Virus record (IMG/VR): IMGVR_UViG_3300017714_000103
Coordinates: 1-29,572 of that record
Strand: one strand, 5' to 3'
DNA: 29,572 bases
From: a virus
Under the pieces are notes generated by a model that did not search any database, was not told the origin of the DNA, and saw only the letters and a program-made list of their open reading frames with translations. This document shows positions 1 to 24,074 of the stretch, one piece after another (positions within the stretch are counted from its first letter, which is position 1; the number at the start of each line of letters is the position of its first letter). The position numbers and the translations under genes are program-made.

Positions 1-361
1 ATTCTTTAATATCAAACTTAGGAAGTTTTATTTCAACGTTACTAATACCTACTTCAGCAATCTGTAAACATTGTAGTGCAAGTTTAGTTACTACATCATC
101 GGGTGTGTTTAACCATTGAAACAGTTTACGCATTTTGTAACTTAACTGTCTGCCTGGAACCCAACTTGCTTTGAAGCCACAGTTGAAACAATGATAACTT
201 ATACCACCTTCGCCGTTATTGATTAGTCCGCCACGTTGTCTTTTGTCAGCATTGGTTCCGTTGTGTACACAACAAGGTGCATTGAAAGAAGTCCAACCAC
301 TTGGAGTAGTTTTCTTCTTAGTAGGTAGATGTAACTGTAGTGTCTCGAATACAATGCTCAT
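1..361 (-). CDS. DNA primase, gp61-like, N-terminal part (runs off left edge)
   Basis: The visible 120 residues begin with the ATG at 359-361 and remain open to the edge. They contain a CHC2-type zinc ribbon: C30 and H33 in a CxxH pair, then C58 and C61 in a CxxC pair, followed by a Trp and basic residues. This is the DNA-recognition zinc module of DnaG and T4 gp61 primases, which prime lagging-strand synthesis together with the gp41 helicase. The catalytic TOPRIM part lies outside the window, so the assignment rests on the zinc module and on the T4-like context. There is no Shine-Dalgarno sequence. A sigma70-type promoter ends six bases before the ATG, which predicts a leaderless mRNA. Confidence 0.75.
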   Translation of the reverse strand, partial: MSIVFETLQLHLPTKKKTTPSGWTSFNAPCCVHNGTNADKRQRGGLINNGEGGISYHCFNCGFKASWVPGRQLSYKMRKLFQWLNTPDDVVTKLALQCLQIAEVGISNVEIKLPKFDIKE

Positions 362-1202: not shown

Positions 1203-1571
1203 ATGATGTTAAGAAAAGACATAGAAGATAAATTTCCGTTTTTAAGTGTTGTTACATATGGTGGCAATGAGTACGTAGGTATCGTTTGTAATCAGGATAA
1301 CTTTATTACAAGCATGTACGTTTACTCAGAGTTACAAGATGGACATCAACCAGTGTTCTTAGAGATGGGTGAAACATGGTGGTGGGAAAGTAACCGCATG
1401 ATCCCTATCAACATCTTTTTGAGAAAAGAGATGGATAAGTTTAGATACGCATTGGTTAACATGAACAGTAAAGACGTAAAGATCGTTCACGGGCCAACTG
1501 TGAACTTAAAGAACCTTACACTCAAGAGAGTGAAAAGACGTTCTGTACAATTAGTAAAAAAGCCTAAATAA
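1203..1571 (+). CDS. conserved phage protein of unknown function
   Basis: A 122-residue basic protein, divergent from the structural gene with only 17 bases between them. It starts with two adjacent ATG codons (1203 and 1206), and the AGGA just upstream fits the second slightly better. It has a compact beta-rich core with a Trp-rich patch (TWWWES, about residues 58-63) and a strongly basic tail (KRVKRRSVQLVKKPK) that suggests nucleic-acid contact. It resembles a small hypothetical protein common in T4-like cyanophages. Its stop codon abuts the stop of the convergent DnaE-like gene, and no terminator lies between them. Confidence 0.7.
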   Translation: MMLRKDIEDKFPFLSVVTYGGNEYVGIVCNQDNFITSMYVYSELQDGHQPVFLEMGETWWWESNRMIPINIFLRKEMDKFRYALVNMNSKDVKIVHGPTVNLKNLTLKRVKRRSVQLVKKPK

Positions 1572-2132
1572 TTACTTTTGGATTTGCTCACAGAGCAAGT
1601 TCATATGAACTACGATTGCTTGGGCATACGCCATTGCGTGTGCTTTCTTAAAGTAGTAGGAACCGTCTTCAGGTTTTACCCACACCTCTTGTAGTATCTG
1701 TTCCCAGCCATGGTCTTGTAGATGTCTCTTCGCTGGTCTTATGATCGCCAGCACTGCCGCTAACTGCGGTATCGTTGTTGGCTTTAGTTTGCTTAGGAGG
1801 TAACTGTGTTCTCCTACGTGAAATAATTGTTTGCTGAATTCTGGAGCGGTTAGTAAATCCCATAATGGTTCCTTCTTCATGAGTCTAATAAGATGTGCTT
1901 CATCTTGTACATCTTTATATATCGAAACGTTGAGGAAGTCTAATTTAAAATATCCTCGCTCTTCTGCAGTCTTGTGTTCGATTGTAGATAAGTTGTCCAC
2001 AGGATTGTGTGGAACCTCAGTTGTGTATACACCTGTGTTATGTTTTTTGCCTGTGTCAAGTTTAGCGACACGATGCTTAATCTTATCAAGCACTACGTTT
2101 CTATCAGCAAAGTCTATATCAATATCAGGCAT
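1572..2132 (-). CDS. miniature DnaE-like (Pol III alpha palm) protein
   Basis: A 186-residue protein colinear with the catalytic palm of bacterial DNA polymerase III alpha but drastically shortened. Residues 2-8 read PDIDIDF, matching the DnaE PDFDVDF motif with two catalytic Asp. Residues 30-35 (KHNTGV) match the GKHAGGVV segment. FKLDFL at 62-67 matches VKFDFLGL with the third catalytic Asp (D65). AVLAIIRPA at 126-134 matches the conserved LFRPGP region, and FKKAHAMAYA at 161-170 matches FNKSHSAAYA. PHP, most of the fingers, the OB fold and the tau-binding region are absent. The ATG at 2132 is chosen because the PDIDIDF motif follows it and GGAAGAG lies ten bases upstream. An in-frame GTG at 2195 would add 21 residues without family similarity. 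Polymerase activity is not implied. Confidence 0.72.
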   Translation of the reverse strand: MPDIDIDFADRNVVLDKIKHRVAKLDTGKKHNTGVYTTEVPHNPVDNLSTIEHKTAEERGYFKLDFLNVSIYKDVQDEAHLIRLMKKEPLWDLLTAPEFSKQLFHVGEHSYLLSKLKPTTIPQLAAVLAIIRPAKRHLQDHGWEQILQEVWVKPEDGSYYFKKAHAMAYAQAIVVHMNLLCEQIQK

Positions 2133-2297: not shown

Positions 2298-2664
2298 TCG
2301 CTTTTTCGATACTACTTTTTTCTTCTTCTTTTGTTTCTTTTGTTTCTGTTTCATTTGCTAAATTGTTTGGTTTAGTGATAGGCAAACCGCCTCTATCAAA
2401 CCATCTATCATCTTGTGTAACAAACACATGACTCTTAAATCGATTACCGTCTGTACCTTTGACCATAGTCATTTTTTTATTAATGGTTCCTTTATAGGTA
2501 GTGTAGTCTCTTTGAACTAATCTATACTTGCCACTATTAGGGTCTCCATAGATTCTATCTACACTTTCTCCGTCAACACCAACATGGTTTGACACTATCA
2601 TTTCATTATTGTTTTGTGTGTTCATAGTTATATTATACAGTTTTTCTTCGTCTTTGTCAATCAT
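2290..2664 (-). CDS. hypothetical phage protein with acidic/charged tail
   Basis: A 124-residue protein of unknown function. Its ATG overlaps the stop of the zinc-finger gene upstream (TTATGA), which supports this start; a second ATG at residue 14 is possible. Residues 25-95 look like a small beta-rich domain with a YGDPNSGKYR stretch and a DDRWFDRGG motif. The last 25 residues are a low-complexity Glu/Lys/Thr tail, probably disordered. It lies in the operon that begins at the promoter near 11.1 kb. Confidence 0.6.
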   Translation of the reverse strand: MIDKDEEKLYNITMNTQNNNEMIVSNHVGVDGESVDRIYGDPNSGKYRLVQRDYTTYKGTINKKMTMVKGTDGNRFKSHVFVTQDDRWFDRGGLPITKPNNLANETETKETKEEEKSSIEKASD

Positions 2665-3344
2665 AAGTTAGCCTTTTGTGCTATTTCTTTTACCAATTCT
2701 ACGTCTGTTGGACTACGTTTAAAACGTAATGCCCAATGCTGTGGATCCATTACAGCATATACAATCCCAAGTTGTTCATCATTAAATTTTGATAACATCT
2801 CTTTACCACTTGCACAATTCAATACAAGCCATGCACTAATCTTACCATCACGTAAATGTTGCGTTACTCTGTTAAGACTTGCATATCTAAAATAATCATT
2901 CCATTGTGCTTCTTGGTCATCTCCCCAATCCATCATAGTTTTGATTGAACGTTCTACTGCTGTTTCAACACCTTCTTTCTTTAAGATACCAATTGCGTAT
3001 TTTTCATACAGTTCATCTCTACACCAATGATCAAGTTTGACTCCGCTTGTTACTACATAGTCAATATACTTCTCTGGGTATAACGGACGCACATTGTTTA
3101 CAAATGATCCAAACTTTACAAATGCGTTATAGTATGATGACTTACAAAATTCTTCATAAGTCTTTTCTTTCTTAACGTTCTGACACAGTACATAGAATCT
3201 TGTAAATGCATAAAAGCCTAACTGTACACGTTTCTCGTTCTTTTGTAATGCTCTACGTTTTTGTTCGCACATATGCACCATAAGAGTTTTTTCTCTTGTG
3301 TATGCTGTATTGCAATATTGACATACGAACTTTTTATCTGACAC
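2661..3344 (-). CDS. conserved phage protein with N-terminal C2HC zinc finger
   Basis: 227 residues from a GTG at 3344. The GTG follows the upstream stop by one base (TAACGTG), and AAGGGG lies eight bases before it. A longer frame from 3422 would overlap the upstream gene by 77 bases and is less likely. The finger is C8-x2-C11 then H24 and C26 in a context typical of nucleic-acid binding (CQYCNTAYTREKTLMVHMC), followed by basic residues. The rest is an alpha-helical domain with conserved-looking aromatic blocks (SSYYNAFVKFGSFV and LDHWCRDELYEKY). Similar zinc-finger proteins occur in T4-like cyanophages without known function. A DNA- or RNA-binding role is inferred. Confidence 0.65.
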   Translation of the reverse strand: MSDKKFVCQYCNTAYTREKTLMVHMCEQKRRALQKNEKRVQLGFYAFTRFYVLCQNVKKEKTYEEFCKSSYYNAFVKFGSFVNNVRPLYPEKYIDYVVTSGVKLDHWCRDELYEKYAIGILKKEGVETAVERSIKTMMDWGDDQEAQWNDYFRYASLNRVTQHLRDGKISAWLVLNCASGKEMLSKFNDEQLGIVYAVMDPQHWALRFKRSPTDVELVKEIAQKANL

Positions 3345-3345
3345 G

Positions 3346-4158
3346 TTAGTAACCCCTTGCGTATCTTTTATTTGTATCGTAACCTGCTTCAAGAATTGCT
3401 TTTCCGATATCTTTGTAGTCATCTGTAGCCTCTAATACTTTCTGATATTTGCCTGCAAACTTTTTATCAATCCCTACACCTAACAATGGTGAAATGCGTT
3501 TCATTAGGAATTCATAATACATCATTGGCGTTGGGTGATAATCTAATGTAGGTTCCTCATCTAAGTTACCTAACTTTGCACCTTTGAACGATAAACGTTT
3601 ATCATGCATCTGTACCATCCAGTTATATAAATCCTTTTCAATCCAATAACTGTTTTGTAAAATCTTTTTGTAAGGTGCCCAATACGGATCATGTAATAAA
3701 TGTTCTCGCATGTCAGTACCAAATATAAAAACTACTCTTGCTTTAATAGTTCTTGCAAGTGCTACTGCGGCGTGTATAGAGTTAAACGAGTGCATCATAT
3801 ACGAACGTTCGTCCCACAACTTATTCATTACAAAGCCTTTAATCTGATCTGCTTGATTATCAACAAATATGTTGCCGCCCGGATACCAACTCTCAGGTAA
3901 GTCTGGATCACTCTTGTGATGATCAAATCTATGATAGTCAGTCCATTGTACAATAACTGTGTCCTCAGTTGTAAAGTCATGACGTAAACATGCTTCACTA
4001 AACCGTTCCATAATCTGTCTATTGCCAGCACCTCTGTTAGCCCAGTTGTAAAACTCAGCATAACTTTGTCCTAAGATATCTGCCCATGTAGGCCAGTGAT
4101 ATCTTGTTAGGCTACAACCAAATGTAAACAGTCTTCCGTTCTTTTTAATTATGCCCAT
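3346..4158 (-). CDS. SGNH/GDSL hydrolase-like protein
   Basis: 270 residues with the hallmarks of the SGNH hydrolase fold. Block I is FGCSLT with candidate nucleophile S16, an NRGAGN segment at 41-46 corresponds to the Gly/Asn blocks, and DYHPTP at 206-211 is the block V Asp-x-His pair. The family includes esterases and carbohydrate deacetylases; the substrate cannot be told from sequence. The protein is cytoplasmic by appearance (no signal peptide). Its ATG overlaps the previous gene by 14 bases, inside an operon otherwise concerned with DNA metabolism. Similar proteins occur in marine T4-like phages. Confidence 0.62.
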   Translation of the reverse strand: MGIIKKNGRLFTFGCSLTRYHWPTWADILGQSYAEFYNWANRGAGNRQIMERFSEACLRHDFTTEDTVIVQWTDYHRFDHHKSDPDLPESWYPGGNIFVDNQADQIKGFVMNKLWDERSYMMHSFNSIHAAVALARTIKARVVFIFGTDMREHLLHDPYWAPYKKILQNSYWIEKDLYNWMVQMHDKRLSFKGAKLGNLDEEPTLDYHPTPMMYYEFLMKRISPLLGVGIDKKFAGKYQKVLEATDDYKDIGKAILEAGYDTNKRYARGY

Positions 4159-4591
4159 TGAATTCCTCTATAAATTTTTCTATATCTTTCTTCTTATTCA
4201 TACTAACTAACATTTGTATTTCATCTGCTTTCATGTTAGGAAATATCTTTTCAAGTTCTTTACCTGATTTATTAGTAGCACCTTTTTTCTTTTTGTAACC
4301 TATCCATTCATGATACTGAATAGACTTGTTTTCGTTTGCTGTCATGCAAAGTAGTTGCCACAATAGTTTCTGATGTTTTGCAATAGTAAAATAGTTCTTG
4401 TTATAATATTCATTAGTTTTGAATACTGAAAGTTCTTGTGCTTCACGTTTACCTTTAACTACACTACAATATCTATTAAGCAAAAAGAAACTAACAGACT
4501 TACGTTGTTCATCAGTAAGTTCGTCCCATACATCTTTTGCATTCATATCGATTGCACCAAGTATATCTTTTAAAGGTAATCTATCAGCCAT
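4145..4591 (-). CDS. possible clamp-loader small subunit (gp62-type)
   Basis: A 148-residue basic helical protein. Its plan is an N-terminal ILGAID segment, an FFLLNRYCS helix (residues 35-43), NEYYNKNYFTIAKHQKLLWQ (60-79), an HEWIGYKKKK segment near 94-103, and a C-terminal helix pair. This matches my recollection of short marine-phage proteins annotated as phage clamp loader A subunit (T4 gp62), which couple gp44 to the gp45 sliding clamp. The similarity is in layout and key aromatics, not a definite motif, and gp44/gp45/gp43 are not in this window. It overlaps both neighbours. Confidence 0.4.
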   Translation of the reverse strand: MADRLPLKDILGAIDMNAKDVWDELTDEQRKSVSFFLLNRYCSVVKGKREAQELSVFKTNEYYNKNYFTIAKHQKLLWQLLCMTANENKSIQYHEWIGYKKKKGATNKSGKELEKIFPNMKADEIQMLVSMNKKKDIEKFIEEFNGHN

Positions 4592-5162
4592 TTAGTTTTG
4601 TCTCTATTGAATATGTCATACCTATTGTAACACGAAACGGAACCGTAGTCAAGTCCATAGTGTGCCAATAGTGTGCAGGAAATAGAACAGCATTTCCTCG
4701 TTTGTATTTTGTTCTTGTTAACTCTGTCTTGCCATCTTCTTCAAAGAAGATTGTATCACCGTCTGCATCATTAACATAGTAAACAAATGTCCATAGTCCG
4801 GGCTCGTTGTTGCTTACATCAGTGTGTGGGCCATAGTAAACGTTTTGTACTGTACCATTAAGTCTTGTACGTGTTACTTGATTAATCTCTGCATCTGGGA
4901 TTGTATTAGGAATAATATCACGAGTCAATGCAGTGTGCAATAACTTTGTAAGTTCTTTGTGATCATCGAGTATGTTGCTTTGTGTACAGAACATAACATC
5001 AGTAAACAGTGCAGGAGTTTTATATTTGTCTCCGTCTTCGTGTTCTGGCGGTACACTTACAAACTGCCAATTAACATCTTTAGTTTGATCTTCAATATAC
5101 TGTACAAGCCATTCTGGAAATGGATTCTCAATATCAAAAATATTTAATGGACTTACTTTCAT
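4584..5162 (-). CDS. 2OG-Fe(II) dioxygenase (prolyl-hydroxylase type)
   Basis: 192 residues forming a double-stranded beta-helix oxygenase. The iron ligands are H113-x-D115 (YGPHTDV) and H167 (AHYWHT), and R177 (VPFRVTIG) is the likely 2-oxoglutarate-binding residue. The domain fills the chain, typical for the small phage members of this family. Such enzymes hydroxylate protein side chains or small molecules; no substrate can be deduced. The ATG overlaps the preceding stop (ATGA). It differs clearly in sequence from the other oxygenases of the window, so they are not recent duplicates. Confidence 0.8.
   Translation of the reverse strand: MKVSPLNIFDIENPFPEWLVQYIEDQTKDVNWQFVSVPPEHEDGDKYKTPALFTDVMFCTQSNILDDHKELTKLLHTALTRDIIPNTIPDAEINQVTRTRLNGTVQNVYYGPHTDVSNNEPGLWTFVYYVNDADGDTIFFEEDGKTELTRTKYKRGNAVLFPAHYWHTMDLTTVPFRVTIGMTYSIETKLNG
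4624..4652 (-). promoter_or_regulatory. candidate internal sigma70-type promoter
   Basis: TTGACT (4647-4652) and TACAAT (4624-4629) are 17 bases apart on the minus strand, inside the 3' end of the oxygenase gene and about 33 bases before the ATG at 4591. The sequence is also coding and lacks the TTGACTTCTGA extension of the two stronger promoters, so a chance match is quite possible. Confidence 0.25.
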
Positions 5163-5448: not shown

Positions 5449-6161
5449 TACTTTCCTTTCTTTTTCATTCGGTTCATAAAACGTGAATAACTTCCTACGC
5501 CCATCATAAGACTGTTCATCTTTTTCAGTTCTTCTGAAGAAACCAAATGTGTTTTTAATTCGATCCGTTTGTCTGATAGTGGCACCAAGTGTAGCCACGG
5601 ATCACCTGGCTCAACGTTTAGTTCACTGTTGAATGGTACCATCAAGTTAACAATAGTTGCGTGTTGATACTTGAACTCTGATATAGCAGGAACTGTCCAA
5701 TACTCTATTGGATTAGTCATGTGCCATTGTGGACTTGTCCATAACCATTTAGTTCCGCTTGTGTCTCTTATCTGCCACGGACTCATTACTTTACCATGAA
5801 ACATGTTTGGCTTGTGGTGTGCATAGTCTTGTGGGTCGTGTGGTATAACAGGACTGCCTTCTGGATACGTTTGGATCATTGCTTGATTAGGTTGATCAAA
5901 TGTTTTAATTTTTAACTGCATCCAGGCAGGAAACATAACGCCTGTTGTTAATAATTCGTTTACGTGTGGGCAACGTTTTAGTGTAGCATTGTCTAAGCCT
6001 TGGTATGTCATGCTATCAAACTTACGTGTTGATGCCATCTTCTTCCACCAATCAGGCATTGTGTCTTTGGCAAGTTCGGGCTCATACGCATCATAGATAA
6101 TACGTTGATCAGTAAAACAATCTAATGTTATTTTGCTTGGCTTATTAAAAATACTAAACAT
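5448..6161 (-). CDS. conserved marine-phage protein of unknown function
   Basis: 237 residues, rich in Trp, Pro and His. It opens with a short basic stretch, then WWKKM near residue 38, a region with CPHVNELLTTG (64-74), a His-rich loop (HDPQDYAHHKPNMFHG, about 108-123), PQWHMTNPIEYW (about 144-155) and a beta-rich end with EPGDPWLHLVPLSDKRIEL. The end recalls uncharacterised DUF6065-like proteins, with low certainty. Start ATG has GAGG just upstream and overlaps the oxygenase gene by 8 bases. It may be a small enzyme acting next to the oxygenase; no motif proves this. Confidence 0.6.
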   Translation of the reverse strand: MFSIFNKPSKITLDCFTDQRIIYDAYEPELAKDTMPDWWKKMASTRKFDSMTYQGLDNATLKRCPHVNELLTTGVMFPAWMQLKIKTFDQPNQAMIQTYPEGSPVIPHDPQDYAHHKPNMFHGKVMSPWQIRDTSGTKWLWTSPQWHMTNPIEYWTVPAISEFKYQHATIVNLMVPFNSELNVEPGDPWLHLVPLSDKRIELKTHLVSSEELKKMNSLMMGVGSYSRFMNRMKKKGK

Positions 6162-6789
6162 CTTGCCTCGTTATATGGTTGTTGTCTAACTGTTGTGGAC
6201 GTTCTAACGCACAGTGCCAATTCATTCCCATTACAATTCTACGTTGTAATGATTTATTTGGTTGACTCTTATGGCTTAACCAGCCTGGAAAGAATACTAC
6301 GTCACCCTGTTTGACTTCAACCTCTGTAAAGTAGTTATGAAGTTTTGATTGATTTTGAGCGAAACGTGGATAGCCTGCAAACAATGTTCTTTCTTTATTT
6401 TCAAATTCTAAGTTGCCACCATTCTCTGGTTGCTGTATATACACACTACAAACAAGATGACTATCACCGTGATCGTGTGTGTCTGTCCATGCACCTTCAA
6501 AGTGACTGTTGACCCAACTCTTTGTTATACCAAATGTGTTGTAGTTCAAGTCCCATGCTTCTAAAACTTTATTTGCTTGTCCTTTTAACCAACCGTTCAA
6601 TAGTCTTGTTTCTTCCCATAAGTGTGGAGCATCAAGATGTCCTGTACTTGTAATACCACCATCTTGCTCTACTTCGCCTTGATCAACAATAGTGTCTAAT
6701 AGTTTTGCACTACGTTCAGCAATAGGGGTTAAGTCTATTGGACAGTTAACTTTATATACTAACTGTGGTGATATTAAAATAGATTCCAT
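6154..6789 (-). CDS. 2OG-Fe(II) oxygenase (TIGR02466-like)
   Basis: 211 residues from the ATG at 6789, which overlaps the cupin stop (TAATG); a longer frame to 6831 lies inside the cupin gene. The oxygenase core reads HDHGDS at 105-110 (iron ligands), followed by VYIQQPENGGNLEFEN, then FFPGWLSHKSQPN at 166-178 with distal H173, and the arginine pair R183/R184 for 2-oxoglutarate. This is the arrangement of the phage/bacterial TIGR02466 oxygenases. The substrate is unknown. It is the best in-window template for recognising the degenerate homologue at 16443-17036. Confidence 0.82.
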   Translation of the reverse strand: MESILISPQLVYKVNCPIDLTPIAERSAKLLDTIVDQGEVEQDGGITSTGHLDAPHLWEETRLLNGWLKGQANKVLEAWDLNYNTFGITKSWVNSHFEGAWTDTHDHGDSHLVCSVYIQQPENGGNLEFENKERTLFAGYPRFAQNQSKLHNYFTEVEVKQGDVVFFPGWLSHKSQPNKSLQRRIVMGMNWHCALERPQQLDNNHITRQDV

Positions 6790-7124
6790 TACGTATATCG
6801 CTTTCCATCGAATACACAAACGAAGTAGCAACCGTTGTCGCCTGCTTCTACTTTGTGAAATACTCCATCTTCAATTAAGACCATTTGTCCTTCTCTAATT
6901 TGAAAGCGGTTGTCATCTAATGTCATGTGTCCGTCGCCTTCAATAAACATATACACTTCTTCCTGACCATCATGTTTATGACCAGATGTTGCTTTGTTAG
7001 GTTTAAGTTTTGTACTACTAACAACTAAATTATTTAATTCTGTATTATCTCTTACAAGATATCTATCGTCTTCCTTTACTACCTTGCCATCAATATTTCT
7101 TATACTCATTACTGCTTGGTTCAC
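6789..7124 (-). CDS. cupin-domain protein
   Basis: 111 residues forming one cupin. The metal-binding motif is GHKH plus a downstream Glu in EEVYMFIEGDGHM (about 48-67), and the second motif includes DGVFHKVEAGDNG (about 86-98). The start is a GTG overlapping the methyltransferase stop (GTGA) with GGTGG upstream; the ATG at residue 6 has no Shine-Dalgarno. Single cupins of this type are sugar isomerases/epimerases, dioxygenases or ligand sensors. Position between a methyltransferase and an oxygenase suggests a small-molecule or sugar role. Confidence 0.75.
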   Translation of the reverse strand: MNQAVMSIRNIDGKVVKEDDRYLVRDNTELNNLVVSSTKLKPNKATSGHKHDGQEEVYMFIEGDGHMTLDDNRFQIREGQMVLIEDGVFHKVEAGDNGCYFVCVFDGKRYT

Positions 7125-16404: not shown

Positions 16405-16429
16405 TAACTTTGTTTAATCGTGGTTGCTC

Positions 16430-16437
16430 AATAAGTA
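16430..16437 (+). promoter_or_regulatory. weak late-promoter-like octamer of the plus-strand cassette
   Basis: AATAAGTA matches six of eight bases of the late octamer and is followed by five bases (ATTGC) and the ATG at 16443, the same geometry as at 1191 and 16386. There is no Shine-Dalgarno. The match is weak on its own; the spacing is what makes it notable. Confidence 0.3.
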
Positions 16438-16442
16438 ATTGC

Positions 16443-17036
16443 ATGGACACTTTAAATTTATTTGTAAACAGCATCAGTAGAGTTACATTTTCAAAGCACA
16501 AAGACGTCAAAAAATTATTTGATAGAATTGTTGAAGATTACCAAAAGCAAACCAATAATACAAATATACAACATATTAATACTTGGCAGAGCAAGGATAA
16601 CTTTCATACTAATAATGCGTTCAAACACATCAGCGAAAGTGAAGATGTTAAGACATTTGTTAAAGAGATTTCTGAGAAGTTTGAAGTTAAACAAGGACAA
16701 CACATTGCTATTACCAGAGCATACGTTCAAACAGTAATGCCGGGCGGGTGCCTAACTAAGACTAAAAAGACAGATAGTTTCTATTCAGGCATGTACTTTG
16801 TAACCAGTGATCCAAAAAGTGGTGGACTTGTAGTAGACAATCCTGTAAGCGAATACTACTTTAGTAAAATTCCAGTAGAGAATAAAAATGCATATAACAG
16901 TTGGCAAACATTCTTGCCAATGCCAGAAGGAGAAATGTATTTTATTCCAGGCTATCTTGACCTAAGTACAACTCCTAATATAAGCGAGAAGCCGTTAGAC
17001 ATTATTACTTTCGATCTCGAAATAATCAAAAAATGA
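16443..17036 (+). CDS. 2OG-oxygenase-fold protein lacking iron ligands (pseudoenzyme)
   Basis: 197 residues from the ATG at 16443; an in-frame TTG at 16410 is a poorer start. It follows the plan of the TIGR02466-type oxygenase at 6154-6789. AYVQTVMPGG leads to the core, TKKTDSFYSGMYFVTSDPKSGG (106-127) aligns with the HDHGDS...VYIQQPENGG block, and YFIPGYLDLSTTPN (166-179) aligns with FFPGWLSHKSQPN. All three iron-ligand positions are non-ligands (Lys/Thr in place of the HxH/D pair, Leu in place of the distal His), and the Arg pair is lost. Catalysis as a 2OG oxygenase is therefore unlikely; a binding or scaffold role is inferred. First gene of a three-gene plus-strand cassette. Confidence 0.62.
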   Translation: MDTLNLFVNSISRVTFSKHKDVKKLFDRIVEDYQKQTNNTNIQHINTWQSKDNFHTNNAFKHISESEDVKTFVKEISEKFEVKQGQHIAITRAYVQTVMPGGCLTKTKKTDSFYSGMYFVTSDPKSGGLVVDNPVSEYYFSKIPVENKNAYNSWQTFLPMPEGEMYFIPGYLDLSTTPNISEKPLDIITFDLEIIKK

Positions 17037-17458
17037 CCGACGAACAAGTATTAGAACTAATCAAGAACTCAAATCAAAATAAGTTCAGTAATGTTCTATT
17101 GCTACCGTTAGGAGATTCTACATTAGATACACATATAGAACAATGGTTATTGGAACGTGTAAACGTGGTTAAAATGCCTGTATATACCCCTGAATCATTA
17201 GAGTATGCTGTTGCTCGTGTAGACTATGCTTTGTGTACTGTAGACGCTTTAAAATGCGTCTTAGACGCCAGTATACCTATGTTTATCAACATACATACTA
17301 ATGAGATTGACATAGTAAATAAGGATAACAGATTTGTATTTGATCCGTTTAGAAATGAACCAAAAGTAGAAATTGATTATACAAGTGTGTTAGAATTAGC
17401 AACCAAATGTCTAAAAAATGATTTAGATAAACATTGGATACCATACTATGAAGTGTAG
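17033..17458 (+). CDS. unknown small alpha/beta protein
   Basis: 141 residues, ATG overlapping the previous stop (ATGA) and overlapping the next gene by 11 bases. The pattern is Rossmann-like: FSNVLLLPLGDSTLDTH, VNVVKMPVYTPESLEYAV, VDYALCTVDALKCVLDASIP and MFINIHTN, followed by a helical end. It could be a half-sized nucleotide-sugar or substrate-binding domain. No family recognised. Tight coupling with the radical SAM gene suggests it works with that enzyme. Confidence 0.6.
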   Translation: MTDEQVLELIKNSNQNKFSNVLLLPLGDSTLDTHIEQWLLERVNVVKMPVYTPESLEYAVARVDYALCTVDALKCVLDASIPMFINIHTNEIDIVNKDNRFVFDPFRNEPKVEIDYTSVLELATKCLKNDLDKHWIPYYEV

Positions 17459-18383
17459 TGCATTTTGGAACCATACTAATATACGAAGTGGCAATAGAGT
17501 CTATCCCTGTTGTCGATTCAAACGCTCTATTGATACATTTGATGGAGATGTTGATAACGTATTACACAGCGATGCATACAAGGACTTACGTGAGCAAAGT
17601 GCCAAAGGCGAGTTTATCAAAGGTTGTGAAAAGTGTTTCTATGAAGAAAAGATAGGACACAAAAGTTTACGTGAGGAGTTCAACGAGAAATACACAATGG
17701 ACAAAGTTGAACTAAAGTTTCTTGAAATTGGTTTTGATAACTTGTGTAATTTAACTTGTGATGGTTGTAATTCAGAATTCAGTACAAGTTGGATTGTAAA
17801 AGAAAAAGAAATTTATGGTGCACCGAAACACAAGTTGATGGAAATTGATGAGGTTACAAATGTACCAGAGGCACTTGAAAAGATATTGTTTCTTGGAGGC
17901 GAACCGTTAATTACTAACAGACATTTGAAACTGTTACGTCAAGTAAAAAACAAAAACAAAGTTGAAGTCATATACAATACTAACGGAACGTTTATACCCA
18001 ACGATGAAGTTGTTGAAGAACTACAGCATTATAAGAAAGTAACTTTTATATTAAGTATTGACGGTATAGGTGAACTTGGAGAACGTGTACGTAGCGGAAC
18101 TAAATGGCCTGATGTAGTTAAGTTTATTGACTGGGTGTACAATAACATGTACGTATTAGAATTTAATTCTGTACTACACAAAAACAATCACATGGGGCTA
18201 AAGGACTTACACGACTTCTGTACAAGATTCGAAGCACGTTGGTATATTAACGTGTTAACATATCCATTTGATTTAGACATTAAAGAACTTGATTTAAACG
18301 CAAAGAATCAAATTATTAATAATGCAAAAGAATTAAATTTACCTAATAAAGATTTTATTATTAATCATTTACAAAAGAATTAA
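17448..18383 (+). CDS. radical SAM protein with N-terminal twitch domain
   Basis: 311 residues. The N-terminus carries an auxiliary Fe-S ligand set (C3, C21/C22 in YPCCRFKR, C60 and C63 in GCEKC) placed before the radical SAM core, the layout of N-terminal twitch radical SAM proteins. The core has C100-x3-C104-x2-C107 (CNLTCDGC), ILFLGGEPL (146-154) for SAM binding, and VIYNTNGT and FILSIDG strands. It would generate a 5'-deoxyadenosyl radical; the auxiliary cluster suggests modification of a bound peptide or sugar. The end overlaps the convergent gene by 23 bases. Confidence 0.85.
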   Translation: MKCSAFWNHTNIRSGNRVYPCCRFKRSIDTFDGDVDNVLHSDAYKDLREQSAKGEFIKGCEKCFYEEKIGHKSLREEFNEKYTMDKVELKFLEIGFDNLCNLTCDGCNSEFSTSWIVKEKEIYGAPKHKLMEIDEVTNVPEALEKILFLGGEPLITNRHLKLLRQVKNKNKVEVIYNTNGTFIPNDEVVEELQHYKKVTFILSIDGIGELGERVRSGTKWPDVVKFIDWVYNNMYVLEFNSVLHKNNHMGLKDLHDFCTRFEARWYINVLTYPFDLDIKELDLNAKNQIINNAKELNLPNKDFIINHLQKN

Positions 18384-19515
18384 TCTTGTGTAGCAATTCA
18401 ACTGGTTGCTTTTCTTTAAACAATCGTAGATAATGTTCTCTGTTGTAATCAAGAACAGGAGTTAAACTATTATACAAGTCACGTACTTCGTGAATGTTTA
18501 ATTCATTTAATTTTTTAACTTGTTCCATTGCACTGTCTAATCTAAGAGATGCGTCTTTAATACTATCATAACGTTCGTCAATAATTTCATTAAACGTCAT
18601 AAAACCCATATCACGTAATAATTTAAGTGTATCTTTAAGACCAACAATAATAAACGGATGTTTGTATAAAAAACATTTTAGAACTTTTTCTGTAAATGCT
18701 TGTCTATCCTGATCGTAAAAATCACCTTCAGTAATAATACTAAAATAACTTTCACTGTAATATGTGTCTGCACTTGGTAAACTTCTTGACATTGATTTGT
18801 ATGTAACTTCATTTAAATCTAATTCAATAGGCAAGTTTTCTTTTAATGTTTGTACAACGCTATCTTGAAGTTGTACATTGTGTAAACTAACATCAAGGTA
18901 TTTTCTATGTTCTTGTTGTTGTAAATTTCCTTCGAGTACATGTTTGTAGTTGCCAAGTGGACAACTTAAAAATGTGTGATCTGCAATACCATTTTGTAAC
19001 AAATAGTTTGTAACTAATAGCCTATGCAACCGTTCTTGTCTGTTTAAACATAAAAACTTTTTCTTACGTAAATTACTATTGCCATTCCAGTCTTTGTTAA
19101 GATGATTACGTATGTCAATGCCGTCATACCTATCTAAGTGTACTTGTACATTAAAGTAAATTTTATTAGGTGTGTTTAACAACTTATTGTTTGTTAATAT
19201 TACCCAATCTATAATATACGGATTATCTAATACTGTTTGTTTTACTAATGCAAGAAATGCATCGTCTGTAAGTCCTTCGTATGAGTCATCTATAACAAGA
19301 AAGGTTGGTATTTTATACGTTTTAAAAAAGTTAGTAAATGTTTCAAATGTGTAATCATTGTCTCCTACATATTCAAAGAATACTACAAGTTTATCTTGGT
19401 CCTCGAGTACTTTATCATTATGTCCTTCAAAATCAATAATACCCTTGAAGTTCTCAATAAACGTACCGAGACTTCTGGAGTTACTGTCCATAGTAATTAA
19501 AGGTATTTTTTTCAT
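18361..19515 (-). CDS. putative glycosyltransferase-like protein
   Basis: 384 residues, ATGA overlap with the radical SAM gene upstream. The N-terminal half is an alpha/beta domain (LVVFFEYVGDND, PTFLVIDDSYEG, IDWVILTNNK). The second half opens with KKFLCLNRQERLHRLLVTNY and has SYFSIITEGDFY, TEKVLKCFLYKHPFIIVG and LLRDMGFMTFNEIIDERYD. That block order resembles exostosin/GT47- or fucosyltransferase-like proteins, where the conserved Glu before K-x-hydrophobic residues binds the donor. The family is not certain. Context with amidinotransferase and radical SAM enzyme suggests transfer of a modified sugar. Confidence 0.55.
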   Translation of the reverse strand: MKKIPLITMDSNSRSLGTFIENFKGIIDFEGHNDKVLEDQDKLVVFFEYVGDNDYTFETFTNFFKTYKIPTFLVIDDSYEGLTDDAFLALVKQTVLDNPYIIDWVILTNNKLLNTPNKIYFNVQVHLDRYDGIDIRNHLNKDWNGNSNLRKKKFLCLNRQERLHRLLVTNYLLQNGIADHTFLSCPLGNYKHVLEGNLQQQEHRKYLDVSLHNVQLQDSVVQTLKENLPIELDLNEVTYKSMSRSLPSADTYYSESYFSIITEGDFYDQDRQAFTEKVLKCFLYKHPFIIVGLKDTLKLLRDMGFMTFNEIIDERYDSIKDASLRLDSAMEQVKKLNELNIHEVRDLYNSLTPVLDYNREHYLRLFKEKQPVELLHKINSFVND

Positions 19516-20375
19516 ATCAATTTTACATTCTTAACCACTGCTTCGTCTTGTGGTTTTAGTTTTGGATTAGCAGGACACATTGCACAAATACTATGTGGCT
19601 TGAAAATATTTTTGACAAATTCTTCAAGTTCACTTTCTTGTACATCAATGTTAAGTCCTTGGTAATCTACATATGGTTTCCAATCAACATCATCAAGTTG
19701 TTGTGCTTTGCCTAAGTATGTACGTACCATACTAATAGGCGGACACTTGTATAACTGTCCTTTGTATATTATAGGATATATGTTTACACCACATGCTTTA
19801 TAACTTGCTTCAGGGTCTTTGTCAGTCCATGGTTTTAGTTTGCCGTTGATTGTTTGCCTATAATCATACCAGCCACCTACTGTAGGATCAGTAACTTCTA
19901 CTTCAACATCGTCTTGCTTGTGTGCAATATTACTAACCATACTCCAGTTGCCTTTGCTGTAAAAAGCATTCCATAAATTAGTTTCAATAAGTTCTCTAAC
20001 CTTAGGATTTTTATTATGTAAACTACAACTAATTTTTGCTCTGCCTATTTTCTTAAGGACCTTTAGTATATCCGGACGCTTGGGTAACAAGAATCCGTTA
20101 GTATAAACTTCAATGACTGCATGATCAAATATGCGTCTTGCTTCTTTTAGTATATCGTATATGCGTGGATGTAATAACGGTTCACCACCAATGATAGTAA
20201 CATGGTCCGGGTCAAGACGTTTGCCCCATGCTTCCATATTACTAACAATGTTATCAAATGATTCTACAAAAGGTAAGTTGTGATCAATGAACCTATCGCA
20301 ACCTGGACATGCCAGATCACAACTTGTCGTGATCATGTATTCAAGATTTGGTATATGATAACCGCGTTTACTCAA
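19512..20375 (-). CDS. radical SAM protein with C-terminal auxiliary cysteines
   Basis: 287 residues from a TTG start (20375) that overlaps the amidinotransferase stop and has GGAAAG five bases before it. The SAM cluster motif is C19-x3-C23-x2-C26 (CDLACPGC), with HVTIIGGEPLLHP (about 58-70) and VIEVYTNGFLLP. Late cysteines in YKACGVN, YKCPPIS and SICAMCPANP form a SPASM/twitch-like set for an additional cluster. Unlike the other radical SAM protein of the window, the extra cluster is at the C-terminus. The substrate is unknown; translational coupling links it to the amidinotransferase. Confidence 0.83.
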   Translation of the reverse strand: MSKRGYHIPNLEYMITTSCDLACPGCDRFIDHNLPFVESFDNIVSNMEAWGKRLDPDHVTIIGGEPLLHPRIYDILKEARRIFDHAVIEVYTNGFLLPKRPDILKVLKKIGRAKISCSLHNKNPKVRELIETNLWNAFYSKGNWSMVSNIAHKQDDVEVEVTDPTVGGWYDYRQTINGKLKPWTDKDPEASYKACGVNIYPIIYKGQLYKCPPISMVRTYLGKAQQLDDVDWKPYVDYQGLNIDVQESELEEFVKNIFKPHSICAMCPANPKLKPQDEAVVKNVKLI

Positions 20376-22841: not shown

Positions 22842-23340
22842 TCTTTACTCCAGTTACTTGCATTGTGTACTTAGGCGACATTCCACTATTAGAACTTAGA
22901 TGTGGTTCATTTTTTTCGATAATAACAGCATCTCCACGTTTCCAATTTGTAATAGGAGTCTTGTTTATTTCAAAGTAATGTCCACTTTGCCAATCCTCAA
23001 GGAATATATTAACACGGATACACCCATCAGGGTGAACATTGTTATGCTTGGCAAACATGTAAAATGTATCAACATGTTCTGGTAAAACTTGTCCTGGTGC
23101 TTGTTGCATTAGTGCTATTGTGCATCTATCAAACAACGTCTTACTAAAGTTTATAAAATTATAAGTTTCAGGAAATGCTTGTTTGTATTTTGTATTCTCT
23201 GCTGTGTAACCTGCAAGATGATATTTTTTATTTTGTGATTCAAAAGCAGTTGCTCTACCTTCATCAGTTACATTGTCTTTGTTTTCCCAAAGAACATTCT
23301 TATATGGTAGGTCGGGTATGTCTAATCTTATTTGGTCCAT
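22822..23340 (-). CDS. 2OG-Fe(II) oxygenase, aspartyl-hydroxylase-like
   Basis: 172 residues. The candidate iron ligands are H89-x-D91 (LPEHVDTF) and H147 (NEPHLSSNS), within a small double-stranded beta-helix; GCIRVNIFLEDW and GHYFEINKTPITNWKRGD lie between. A Lys (K157) occupies the usual position of the 2-oxoglutarate Arg, as in some members of the asparaginyl/aspartyl hydroxylase and clavaminate-like groups. Overlaps its neighbour by 13 bases. Substrate unknown. Confidence 0.7.
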   Translation of the reverse strand: MDQIRLDIPDLPYKNVLWENKDNVTDEGRATAFESQNKKYHLAGYTAENTKYKQAFPETYNFINFSKTLFDRCTIALMQQAPGQVLPEHVDTFYMFAKHNNVHPDGCIRVNIFLEDWQSGHYFEINKTPITNWKRGDAVIIEKNEPHLSSNSGMSPKYTMQVTGVKNEFKRR

Positions 23341-24074
23341 GGCTTATCGTAAGGTACCTTTTCTTTATCATCAAACCAGTACAGGCTTCTGTGTGGTGGG
23401 TGTTTATCATCATGTTTAGCATTACTAACATAATAAAACAAACGTAATGCTTTTCTACTTGTATTTTTTGGATTTGTCATTGGATTTGGATATCCGTGAA
23501 ATGCAAAGTTATCATAACTCCATATAACAGCATTACCATTACCAACAGGAACTTTACTGTGTACAGTTTGTCTTTCTCTATCATAGAACTGTAACTGTCC
23601 GCCCCATTCTTCTTTCCAATCATCATTAAGATATATTACTAAACTTAACATACGATGCAATCGTATTTGCTCGTTCCAATTGAAATCACAGTGTACTTTT
23701 AAACTATCACCTGTTAGTGACTTTACATATCCTGCACCAATTAAGTGAGGATCAGGTATGAGGTCAACAGTATCAGTAACTTCTTGTAACCATTTAATAA
23801 ATGTAGAACTGTGTAGTGCATCAATAACTGCATCTTGTACAGGCGTTTTTGTAACGTCATTATACTCGTACATACACGAACCTGCTCGTGTAAAATGTTT
23901 ACAATCTTCAAGTGGAACATTGTCTAACTCTTTAGCCATTGCACTAACAATATGCTTAGGAACAAAATCCTCAAGTGTTAGTAAACTATAACTTGGATGA
24001 CTACGATATGTCTTTTGTAATTCGTATGGGTCAGTGAAGTTTTCTATAATATGTTTAACAAGTTGTTGTTTCAT
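23328..24074 (-). CDS. 2OG-Fe(II) oxygenase (prolyl-4-hydroxylase-like)
   Basis: 248 residues with the P4H pattern: H128-C-D130 (LKVHCDFNWN), RMLSLVIYLNDDW (141-153), EEWGGQLQFYD (155-165), distal H193 (NFAFHGYPNP) and an Arg in SRKALRLFYY (206-215). The 100-residue helical N-terminus is a typical lid. Relatives hydroxylate proline or other residues, or oxidise sugars. ATG overlaps the previous stop (ATGA). Adjacent to another oxygenase and a methyltransferase, suggesting successive tailoring steps. Confidence 0.82.
   Translation of the reverse strand: MKQQLVKHIIENFTDPYELQKTYRSHPSYSLLTLEDFVPKHIVSAMAKELDNVPLEDCKHFTRAGSCMYEYNDVTKTPVQDAVIDALHSSTFIKWLQEVTDTVDLIPDPHLIGAGYVKSLTGDSLKVHCDFNWNEQIRLHRMLSLVIYLNDDWKEEWGGQLQFYDRERQTVHSKVPVGNGNAVIWSYDNFAFHGYPNPMTNPKNTSRKALRLFYYVSNAKHDDKHPPHRSLYWFDDKEKVPYDKPWTK

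What the first reader, a model, noticed from the sequence alone, without database searches (positions are those of the whole stretch)
1572..2132. A 186-residue miniature of the bacterial replicase DnaE with all three catalytic Asp
The protein lines up in order with five conserved blocks of Pol III alpha (PDxDxDF, GKHxxGV, KxDFL, the LFRPGP region, FNKSHxxAYA), but with almost everything between them removed. The three metal-binding Asp of the palm (D3, D5, D65) are kept, while PHP, most of the fingers and the DNA-binding parts are gone. A T4-like phage has its own family B polymerase, so this could be a domesticated DnaE fragment acting as inhibitor, clamp or tau decoy, primer-end binder, or a minimal nucleotidyltransferase.
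Basis: partly seen in the sequence, partly recalled or inferred. Interest (0 to 1): 0.85.

Follow-up and report, generated by a model that had tools for sequence, protein, structure and literature searches.

The report
Half of a split phage polymerase
The 186-residue protein is one of two separately encoded halves of a stripped-down bacterial-type DNA polymerase core that very large phages carry beside their main polymerase; the kind was described in 2021, but I found no published test of what it does.

Summary
In detail: window 2132..1572 (-) encodes 186 aa that align in order with bacterial Pol III alpha (DnaE) from the metal motif to FNKSHxxAYA. A family match (PHROG 405, E 3.8e-5), a profile comparison (E 1.7e-5) and a confident predicted fold (pLDDT 91) agree; the 15 best structural rows are all DnaE/PolC. 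The reading as a lone domesticated fragment, decoy or inhibitor is not supported. The protein is the C-terminal half of a split, minimal Pol III alpha. In 7 of 7 named jumbo phages tested, a second gene about 30 kb or more away encodes the N-terminal half with the GRGSS motif. It stops at DnaE residue 392-393; ours starts at about 399. All 80 metagenomic N-halves examined stop there. Catalytic Asp and Lys are invariant in 121 of 121 distinct C-halves. The pair lacks PHP, thumb, tip of fingers and tail. Iyer et al. 2021 (PMC7824862) published this split polymerase, so this is a new member of a known kind. Added: exact junction, thumb deletion, and gene positions (N-half near clamp-loader-type genes, C-half near helicase and primase genes). 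Biochemistry untested; the window fragment lacks the partner.

The parts
1572..2132 (-). C-terminal half of a split minimal DNA polymerase III alpha (186 aa): second part of the palm with metal Asp D3/D5/D65, plus the base of the fingers; no thumb
2109..2129 (-). PDIDIDF metal motif, residues 2-8; D3 and D5 correspond to E. coli D401 and D403
1929..1946 (-). KLDFLN, residues 63-68; K63 and D65 correspond to E. coli K553 and D555
1623..1652 (-). FKKAHAMAYA, residues 161-170; H165 and Y169 correspond to E. coli H760 and Y764
1203..1571 (+). Convergent 122-aa gene (PHROG 11637, unknown function); a homologue sits convergently downstream in 148 of 149 loci with room
2661..3422 (-). 253-aa protein (PHROG 11058) with a sub-threshold C2H2 zinc-finger match; a homologue was found upstream in 158 of 158 loci with room
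2..361 (-). Start of a DNA primase-like gene (PHROG 47, E 1.3e-5), cut by the window end

Best explanation
The protein is the C-terminal half of a two-gene, minimal family C (Pol III alpha type) polymerase core of jumbo phages with T4-type replication genes. It supplies the three metal-binding aspartates, the catalytic lysine and the base of the fingers. The partner, about 160-185 aa, encoded elsewhere in related genomes, supplies the first half of the palm with the GRGSS nucleotide-binding motif. The two are expected to associate without a covalent link and rebuild one nucleotidyltransferase active site, working beside the phage's family B polymerase. Shown here: homology, complementary and exact split, co-occurrence in related genomes, invariant catalytic residues, gene neighbourhoods. 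Inferred: physical association, enzymatic activity, a role at the fork, and presence of the partner in this phage, whose record is a 29.6 kb fragment.
For: Partner found with PF07733 in 7 of 7 named phage records that hold the C-half, E 7.9e-13 to 1.4e-8, profile positions about 18-98. N-half profile against DnaE: probability 97.6, E 3.2e-12, E. coli 313-395; PDB sequence match E 4.5e-4, E. coli 321-392; predicted fold pLDDT 92.3, 13 of the top 13 rows DnaE/PolC, Z 12.3 to 7.8, E. coli rows ending at 393. C-half fold starts at E. coli 399-401 (the tenth row aligns only from model residue 2). 80 of 80 N-halves kept from a scan end 33-39 aa from the start of GRGS; none of 160 C-half frames contains GRGS or has more than 52 residues before the metal motif. 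Co-occurrence: 59 of the 60 listed C-half phage records (63 in all) are among the 60 listed N-half records (175 in all); 7 of 8 N-half metagenome records of 200 kb or more hold the C-half; 3 of 5 C-half records of 200 kb or more hold the N-half (G002, G003, G066; not G004, G065), not counting G049, which came from the N-half scan. D3, D5, D7, H31, K63, D65, R132, F161, K162, H165, Y169 invariant in 121 of 121. Family B polymerase in 7 of 7 named phages and 8 of 8 N-half records of 200 kb or more. Prior statement of the same idea: PMC7824862.
Against: The N-half is not in the window, so pairing in this phage is inferred. Exceptions among large records: G043 (359 kb) has N-half and family B polymerase but no detected C-half; G065 (210 kb) has C-half and family B polymerase but no detected N-half, its polymerase gene lying 7 kb from the record's end; G004 (262 kb) has neither N-half nor family B polymerase. 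All these records are classed linear and may be incomplete. The pair lacks the thumb and the R709-bearing part of the fingers, so ordinary processive DNA synthesis is doubtful. The first 70 or so residues of the N-half have no detected match. No complex was modelled. Retrieval was pattern-based: the C-half patterns included D3-D7, and F161-H165, the N-half patterns GRGSS, so conservation of those is partly by construction; H31, K63, D65, R132, Y169 and the N-half stop position were in no pattern.
Confidence: 0.85

Rival explanations
1. A stand-alone minimal nucleotidyltransferase: the C-half alone binds metal and nucleotide and acts without the N-half.
For: The metal ligands and the Y159/F161/Y169 aromatics are in this chain; 30 of 37 C-half records show no N-half-like match, and neither do G065 (210 kb), G067 (180 kb) and G070 (78 kb).
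Against: Most of those records are short or visibly incomplete; the GRGSS part of the palm lies in the partner, and the two occur together in 7 of 7 named phages and most large records.
Confidence: 0.07
2. A catalytically dead decoy or inhibitor of the host replicase.
For: Derived from a bacterial-type replicase fold; small; related phages have their own family B polymerase.
Against: Catalytic Asp and Lys invariant in 121 of 121; the clamp- and tau-binding C-terminus is absent (alignment ends at E. coli 781); a second gene keeps the rest of the active site.
Confidence: 0.05
3. A trans-spliced DnaE, joined by a split intein as in cyanobacteria.
For: Two genes for one catalytic core.
Against: N-halves stop 33-39 aa from the start of GRGS, leaving no room for an intein (80 of 80); C-half frames have at most 52 residues before the metal motif, and at most 32 in 157 of 160.
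Confidence: 0.01
4. Chance resemblance or an unrelated fold.
For: No Pfam or PDB sequence hit for the C-half.
Against:: three methods agree, and the structural list is exclusively DnaE/PolC down to rank 15.
Confidence: 0.02

Closest known systems
Split minimal Pol III alpha of group 2.2 jumbo phages (Iyer et al. 2021, PMC7824862; section 13 read, other passages seen)
   Same: C-terminal Mg2+/template-binding half in its own gene, N-terminal NTP-binding half in a distant gene, family B polymerase in the same genomes; same protein families as in Atu_ph07, which the paper names in that group, and RaK2 and CBB (PHROG 11778 and, for the three N-halves scanned, PHROG 11127).
   Different: The window is an uncultured relative, 32-51% identical to the cultured members listed; its partner is outside the fragment.
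Bacterial DnaE (Pol III alpha), E. coli
   Same: Palm and base of fingers; counterparts of D401, D403, D555, K553, H511, R639, H760, Y764.
   Different: Split between residues 393 and 399; no PHP (1-280), thumb (433-509), tip of fingers (811-928) or tail (929-1160); domain limits from PMC4703070 (passages).
PolC of Gram-positive bacteria
   Same: Tied best structural row (3f2c_A, Z 9.6, 183 residues). End points against E. faecium 9qrn_A (1-186 on 970-1301, Z 7.8) would put D3/D5 and Y159/F161/Y169 on D972/D974 and Y1274/F1276/Y1284, residues named in PMC12592400 (passages); an inference, since ranges give end points only.
   Different: PolC is one long chain with an exonuclease domain.
Contiguous PHP-less mini-DnaE (548 aa) in some metagenomic relatives
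   Same: Family C core, in the same contigs as the C-half in 5 of 37 records.
   Different: One chain with 82 positions between the counterparts of D405 and H511, an RRAFAKK motif and a C-terminal extension; a fuller family C core (PHROG 405 E 9.3e-68).

Membership tests
Split minimal Pol III alpha of jumbo phages | C-terminal half with metal Asp as a separate gene | tested here: met
Split minimal Pol III alpha of jumbo phages | N-terminal NTP-binding half encoded elsewhere in the same genome | tested here: inconclusive
   Absent from the 29.6 kb window, which is a fragment; present in 7 of 7 named phages and in large relatives G002, G003, G066
Split minimal Pol III alpha of jumbo phages | Family B polymerase in the same genome | tested here: inconclusive
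   Not in the window fragment; present in 7 of 7 named phages and 8 of 8 N-half records of 200 kb or more; absent from G004 and from records under 200 kb tested
Bacterial DnaE / Pol III alpha (single-chain replicase) | Three catalytic Asp in palm context | tested here: met
   side-chain distances not measured
Bacterial DnaE / Pol III alpha (single-chain replicase) | GRGS nucleotide-binding segment in the same chain | tested here: not met
   absent from this protein and from 160 of 160 C-half frames
Bacterial DnaE / Pol III alpha (single-chain replicase) | Thumb between first and second palm motifs | tested here: not met
   D7 to H31 is 24 positions, D405 to H511 is 106; E. coli thumb is 433-509
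Bacterial DnaE / Pol III alpha (single-chain replicase) | PHP domain, clamp- and tau-binding C-terminus | tested here: not met
   Chain covers E. coli 399-781 only
Bacterial DnaE / Pol III alpha (single-chain replicase) | Template-directed DNA synthesis | not testable with these tools
   needs biochemistry
Split-intein DnaE | Intein halves at the split | tested here: not met

The most novel reading that the evidence does not exclude
The split is functional, not just ancestral. The halves are made from two replication gene clusters (N-half near clamp-loader-type genes, C-half near helicase and primase genes) and may ride on different fork subassemblies, so that a thumbless family C active site forms only when these meet. 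It would then act as a conditional primer-extending or nucleotidyl-adding enzyme, a phage counterpart in function of Pol alpha, beside a family B replicase.
Probability: 0.12. Interest if true: 0.8.

Novelty: new member of a known kind. Interest (0 to 1): 0.42.

Why it matters
Family C polymerases are the replicases of bacteria, and why a phage with its own family B polymerase keeps a split, thumbless family C core under purifying selection is open. A thumbless core of about 350 residues may also be among the smallest family C catalytic units (inference; not surveyed), which bears on how that enzyme arose, as Iyer et al. argued (passage).

Tried and rejected
Rejected: lone miniature (partner gene found in relatives); decoy or inhibitor (catalytic residues invariant, binding tail absent); trans-splicing (no room for an intein); chance (three methods agree). 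Considered and set aside: that in some phages the C-half goes with the 548-aa mini-DnaE in place of its N-half. The mini-DnaE was found in 5 of 37 C-half records (G016, G023, G024, G025, G037), 18-78 kb fragments in which a missing N-half means little; it was not found in 26 other records (the 4 weak hits there lie at N-half genes).

Led nowhere: PDB sequence searches with the C-half; Pfam and NCBIfam on the window protein; Pfam on ten neighbouring window proteins, which gave two sub-threshold matches (C2H2, ARM) on one of them; a paper search for a split Pol III, whose 20 listed papers (of 103) all came from the term 'split DnaE' and by title are mostly intein work. Coevolution between the halves was not tried: too few paired genomes.

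Biases: loci came from the best 80 hits per scan and from peptide patterns. Partner searches were given only larger records: 37 of 80 C-half records, 6 of 80, 27 of 80 N-half records. Identical strings were counted once in the residue counts (121 of 160 C-halves, 79 of 80 N-halves). Habitat of the metagenomic records was not looked up.

Full report
What is there. The ORF at 2132..1572 on the minus strand is a real gene of 186 aa, under purifying selection (dN 0.066, dS 0.66 against L009, 89% amino-acid identity). It matches PHROG 11778, annotated 'DNA polymerase', over residues 3-183 (E 6.5e-61), and PHROG 405, a 1190-position DNA polymerase family (E 3.8e-5). It gets no hit from Pfam or NCBIfam or from sequence searches of solved structures that would name DnaE. 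A 59-sequence profile aligned to 8 DnaE sequences with E 1.7e-5, from E. coli 510 to 774. AlphaFold2 gave pLDDT 91.3, and the second-look structural alignment put DnaE and PolC in all of the top 15 rows, 176-184 residues aligned, best Z 9.6 at 3.2 A; the next row is Z 3.4.

What is missing and where it went. Related phages carry a second gene. Pfam PF07733 finds it in 7 of 7 named phage records holding the C-half (RaK2, CBB, Atu_ph07, Phosso, SCTP-2, PAC2, Vibrio 2.275.O) and in 2 of 7 metagenomic records, G002 and G003. In the named phages it lies about 30 to 224 kb from the C-half in the record (positions); in G002 the two lie near opposite ends of the record, so the true distance is unknown. 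It is about 160-185 aa; the three scanned belong to PHROG 11127, also annotated 'DNA polymerase'. The G003 copy ends ...GRGSSVASYVLYLIGVHKINSIQYGLDWREFLR. The family profile matches E. coli DnaE 321-392 or 313-395, and the predicted fold of one member, L146 (pLDDT 92.3), matches DnaE/PolC in 13 of the top 13 rows, best Z 12.3, from about model residue 70 on, with E. coli rows ending at residue 393. Our protein starts at residue 399-401. The cut therefore lies just before the metal motif. In 80 of 80 metagenomic N-halves examined the chain stops 33-39 residues from the start of GRGS. None of 160 C-half frames holds GRGS or has more than 52 residues before the metal motif, so there is no room for a split intein.

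Co-occurrence. Of 63 phage records with the C-half, 60 were listed, and 59 of these are also among the 60 listed N-half records (175 in all, which include single-chain DnaE); the exception, PP728206, is a 109 kb record. OP752703 was on the N-half list only, but 3 C-half records were not listed. Among 27 metagenomic N-half records 9 hold the C-half, including 7 of the 8 of 200 kb or more; the exception is G043, 359 kb. Among 37 C-half records, A1 finds a true N-half in 2, both 236 kb, a mini-DnaE in 5 and nothing in 30. Of six more C-half records, 3 hold the N-half: G066 (261 kb), G068, G069; not G065 (210 kb), G067 or G070. G004 (262 kb) and G006 (167 kb) hold neither N-half nor family B polymerase and look incomplete. 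G065 does hold a family B polymerase, 7 kb from its end. In G047, G049, G053, G066 and PAC2 the N-half lies about 24-45 kb upstream of that gene (positions), so in G065 it may be off the record; this is an inference, and in RaK2 the order is reversed. Family B polymerase was found in 7 of 7 named phages and 8 of 8 N-half records of 200 kb or more. The window holds neither, but it is a 29,572-base fragment and the C-half lies 1.6 kb from its end.

Active site. In 121 distinct C-halves D3, D5, D7, H31, K63, D65, R132, F161, K162, H165 and Y169 never vary. The search patterns contained D3-D7 and F161-H165, so those are partly biased; H31, K63, D65, R132 and Y169 are not. End points of the alignment to E. 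faecium PolC 9qrn_A (model 1-186 on 970-1301) would place D3 and D5 on catalytic D972 and D974, and Y159, F161 and Y169 on Y1274, F1276 and Y1284, which PMC12592400 places at the polymerase site, F1276 being important for positioning the incoming nucleotide (passages). A range gives end points only, and the 9qpc row is shifted by one at the start, so this registration is an inference. E. coli domains from PMC4703070 (passages) show what the two halves lack: PHP 1-280, thumb 433-509, tip of fingers 811-928, tail 929-1160. The stretch from R639 to F756, which carries Q687, E688 and R709 (invariant in 8 DnaE), shrinks from 117 to 29 positions (R132 to F161). What is left is palm plus base of the fingers.

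Setting. In the 7 named phages the C-half is followed by a convergent gene of about 117-132 aa and then, starting within about 4 kb, by a gene annotated as gp41 or DnaB-type helicase or primase/helicase (7 of 7), with a separate primase annotated in 4 of 7. In 160 metagenomic loci the convergent gene is present in 148 of 149 with at least 450 bases downstream, a homologue of the C2H2-like protein upstream in 158 of 158 with at least 900 bases, and a homologue of the window's primase piece downstream in 83 of 94 with at least 3.5 kb. The N-half is followed within about 3.5 kb by a gene annotated clamp loader or gp44 in 4 of 7 and by an unnamed AAA or P-loop ATPase in the other 3. I did not see this contrast in the parts of PMC7824862 that I read; I did not read the whole paper.

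Literature. Iyer et al. 2021, PMC7824862 (section 13 read, other passages seen), described a minimal Pol III alpha of group 2.2 jumbo phages split into an N-terminal NTP-binding and a C-terminal Mg2+- and template-binding protein in distant genes, beside a family B polymerase, and proposed that they reconstitute an enzyme for one strand or repair. PMC5259590 (passages) noted a truncated 172-aa Pol III alpha in CBB, CBB_328; by number and length this is the N-half. PMC6102473 (passages) names Atu_ph07 gp316, also the N-half. PMC9123017 (passage) reports PF07733 in 51.9% of one group of jumbo phages in a marine study, which may be the N-half. Six literature searches showed, in titles and the abstract openings listed, no biochemical test of the split enzyme; most listed papers were not opened.

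Mechanism. Best supported: two chains rebuild one nucleotidyltransferase site; confidence 0.85 for identity and pairing together, lower (about 0.5) for DNA synthesis at the fork as the activity. Without a thumb and with cut fingers, short primer extension, gap filling or untemplated addition fit better than processive replication; this is inference. The bold reading, that the split makes activity conditional on contact between clamp-loader and primase-helicase assemblies, rests only on gene positions.

Verdict. A new member of a known kind. The finding is real and worth a bench test, but the central surprise, a miniature replicase in a phage with its own polymerase, was published in 2021 and is really half of a pair.

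Noticed in passing
L106, L109, L110 (records G024, G037, G023); truncated copies in L107, L108 (G016, G025): A contiguous, PHP-less family C polymerase of 548 aa (PHROG 405 E 9.3e-68 for L109) lies in the same contigs as the C-half in 5 of 37 records, about 5.5-10 kb away; it may be a second family C enzyme in those phages.
   Followed up: partly
window 1203-1571 (+): Convergent 122-aa gene of unknown function (PHROG 11637) whose end abuts the polymerase-half gene; homologue in 148 of 149 loci with room.
   Followed up: partly
window 2661-3422 (-): 253-aa protein (PHROG 11058) with a sub-threshold C2H2 zinc-finger match; homologue upstream of the C-half in 158 of 158 loci with room, 3 to 3170 bases away. 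A candidate accessory factor.
   Followed up: partly
window 4584-5162, 6154-6831, 16410-17036, 23328-24074: Four proteins matching 2OG-Fe(II) oxygenase PHROGs (for the first the best hit is phrog_274, 'DNA endonuclease V'), with two radical SAM proteins (17448-18383, 19512-20375), in one 29.6 kb fragment.
   Followed up: no
L289-L293 and L295, downstream of the N-half gene: A gene annotated GroES, chaperonin (10) or 'head morphogenesis' lies between the N-half and the clamp-loader-type gene in 6 of 7 named phages (not annotated so in SCTP-2).
   Followed up: no
G043 (359 kb record of L129) and G065 (210 kb record of L249): The exceptions to co-occurrence among large records with a family B polymerase: G043 has the N-half but no detected C-half, G065 the C-half but no detected N-half.
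   Followed up: partly
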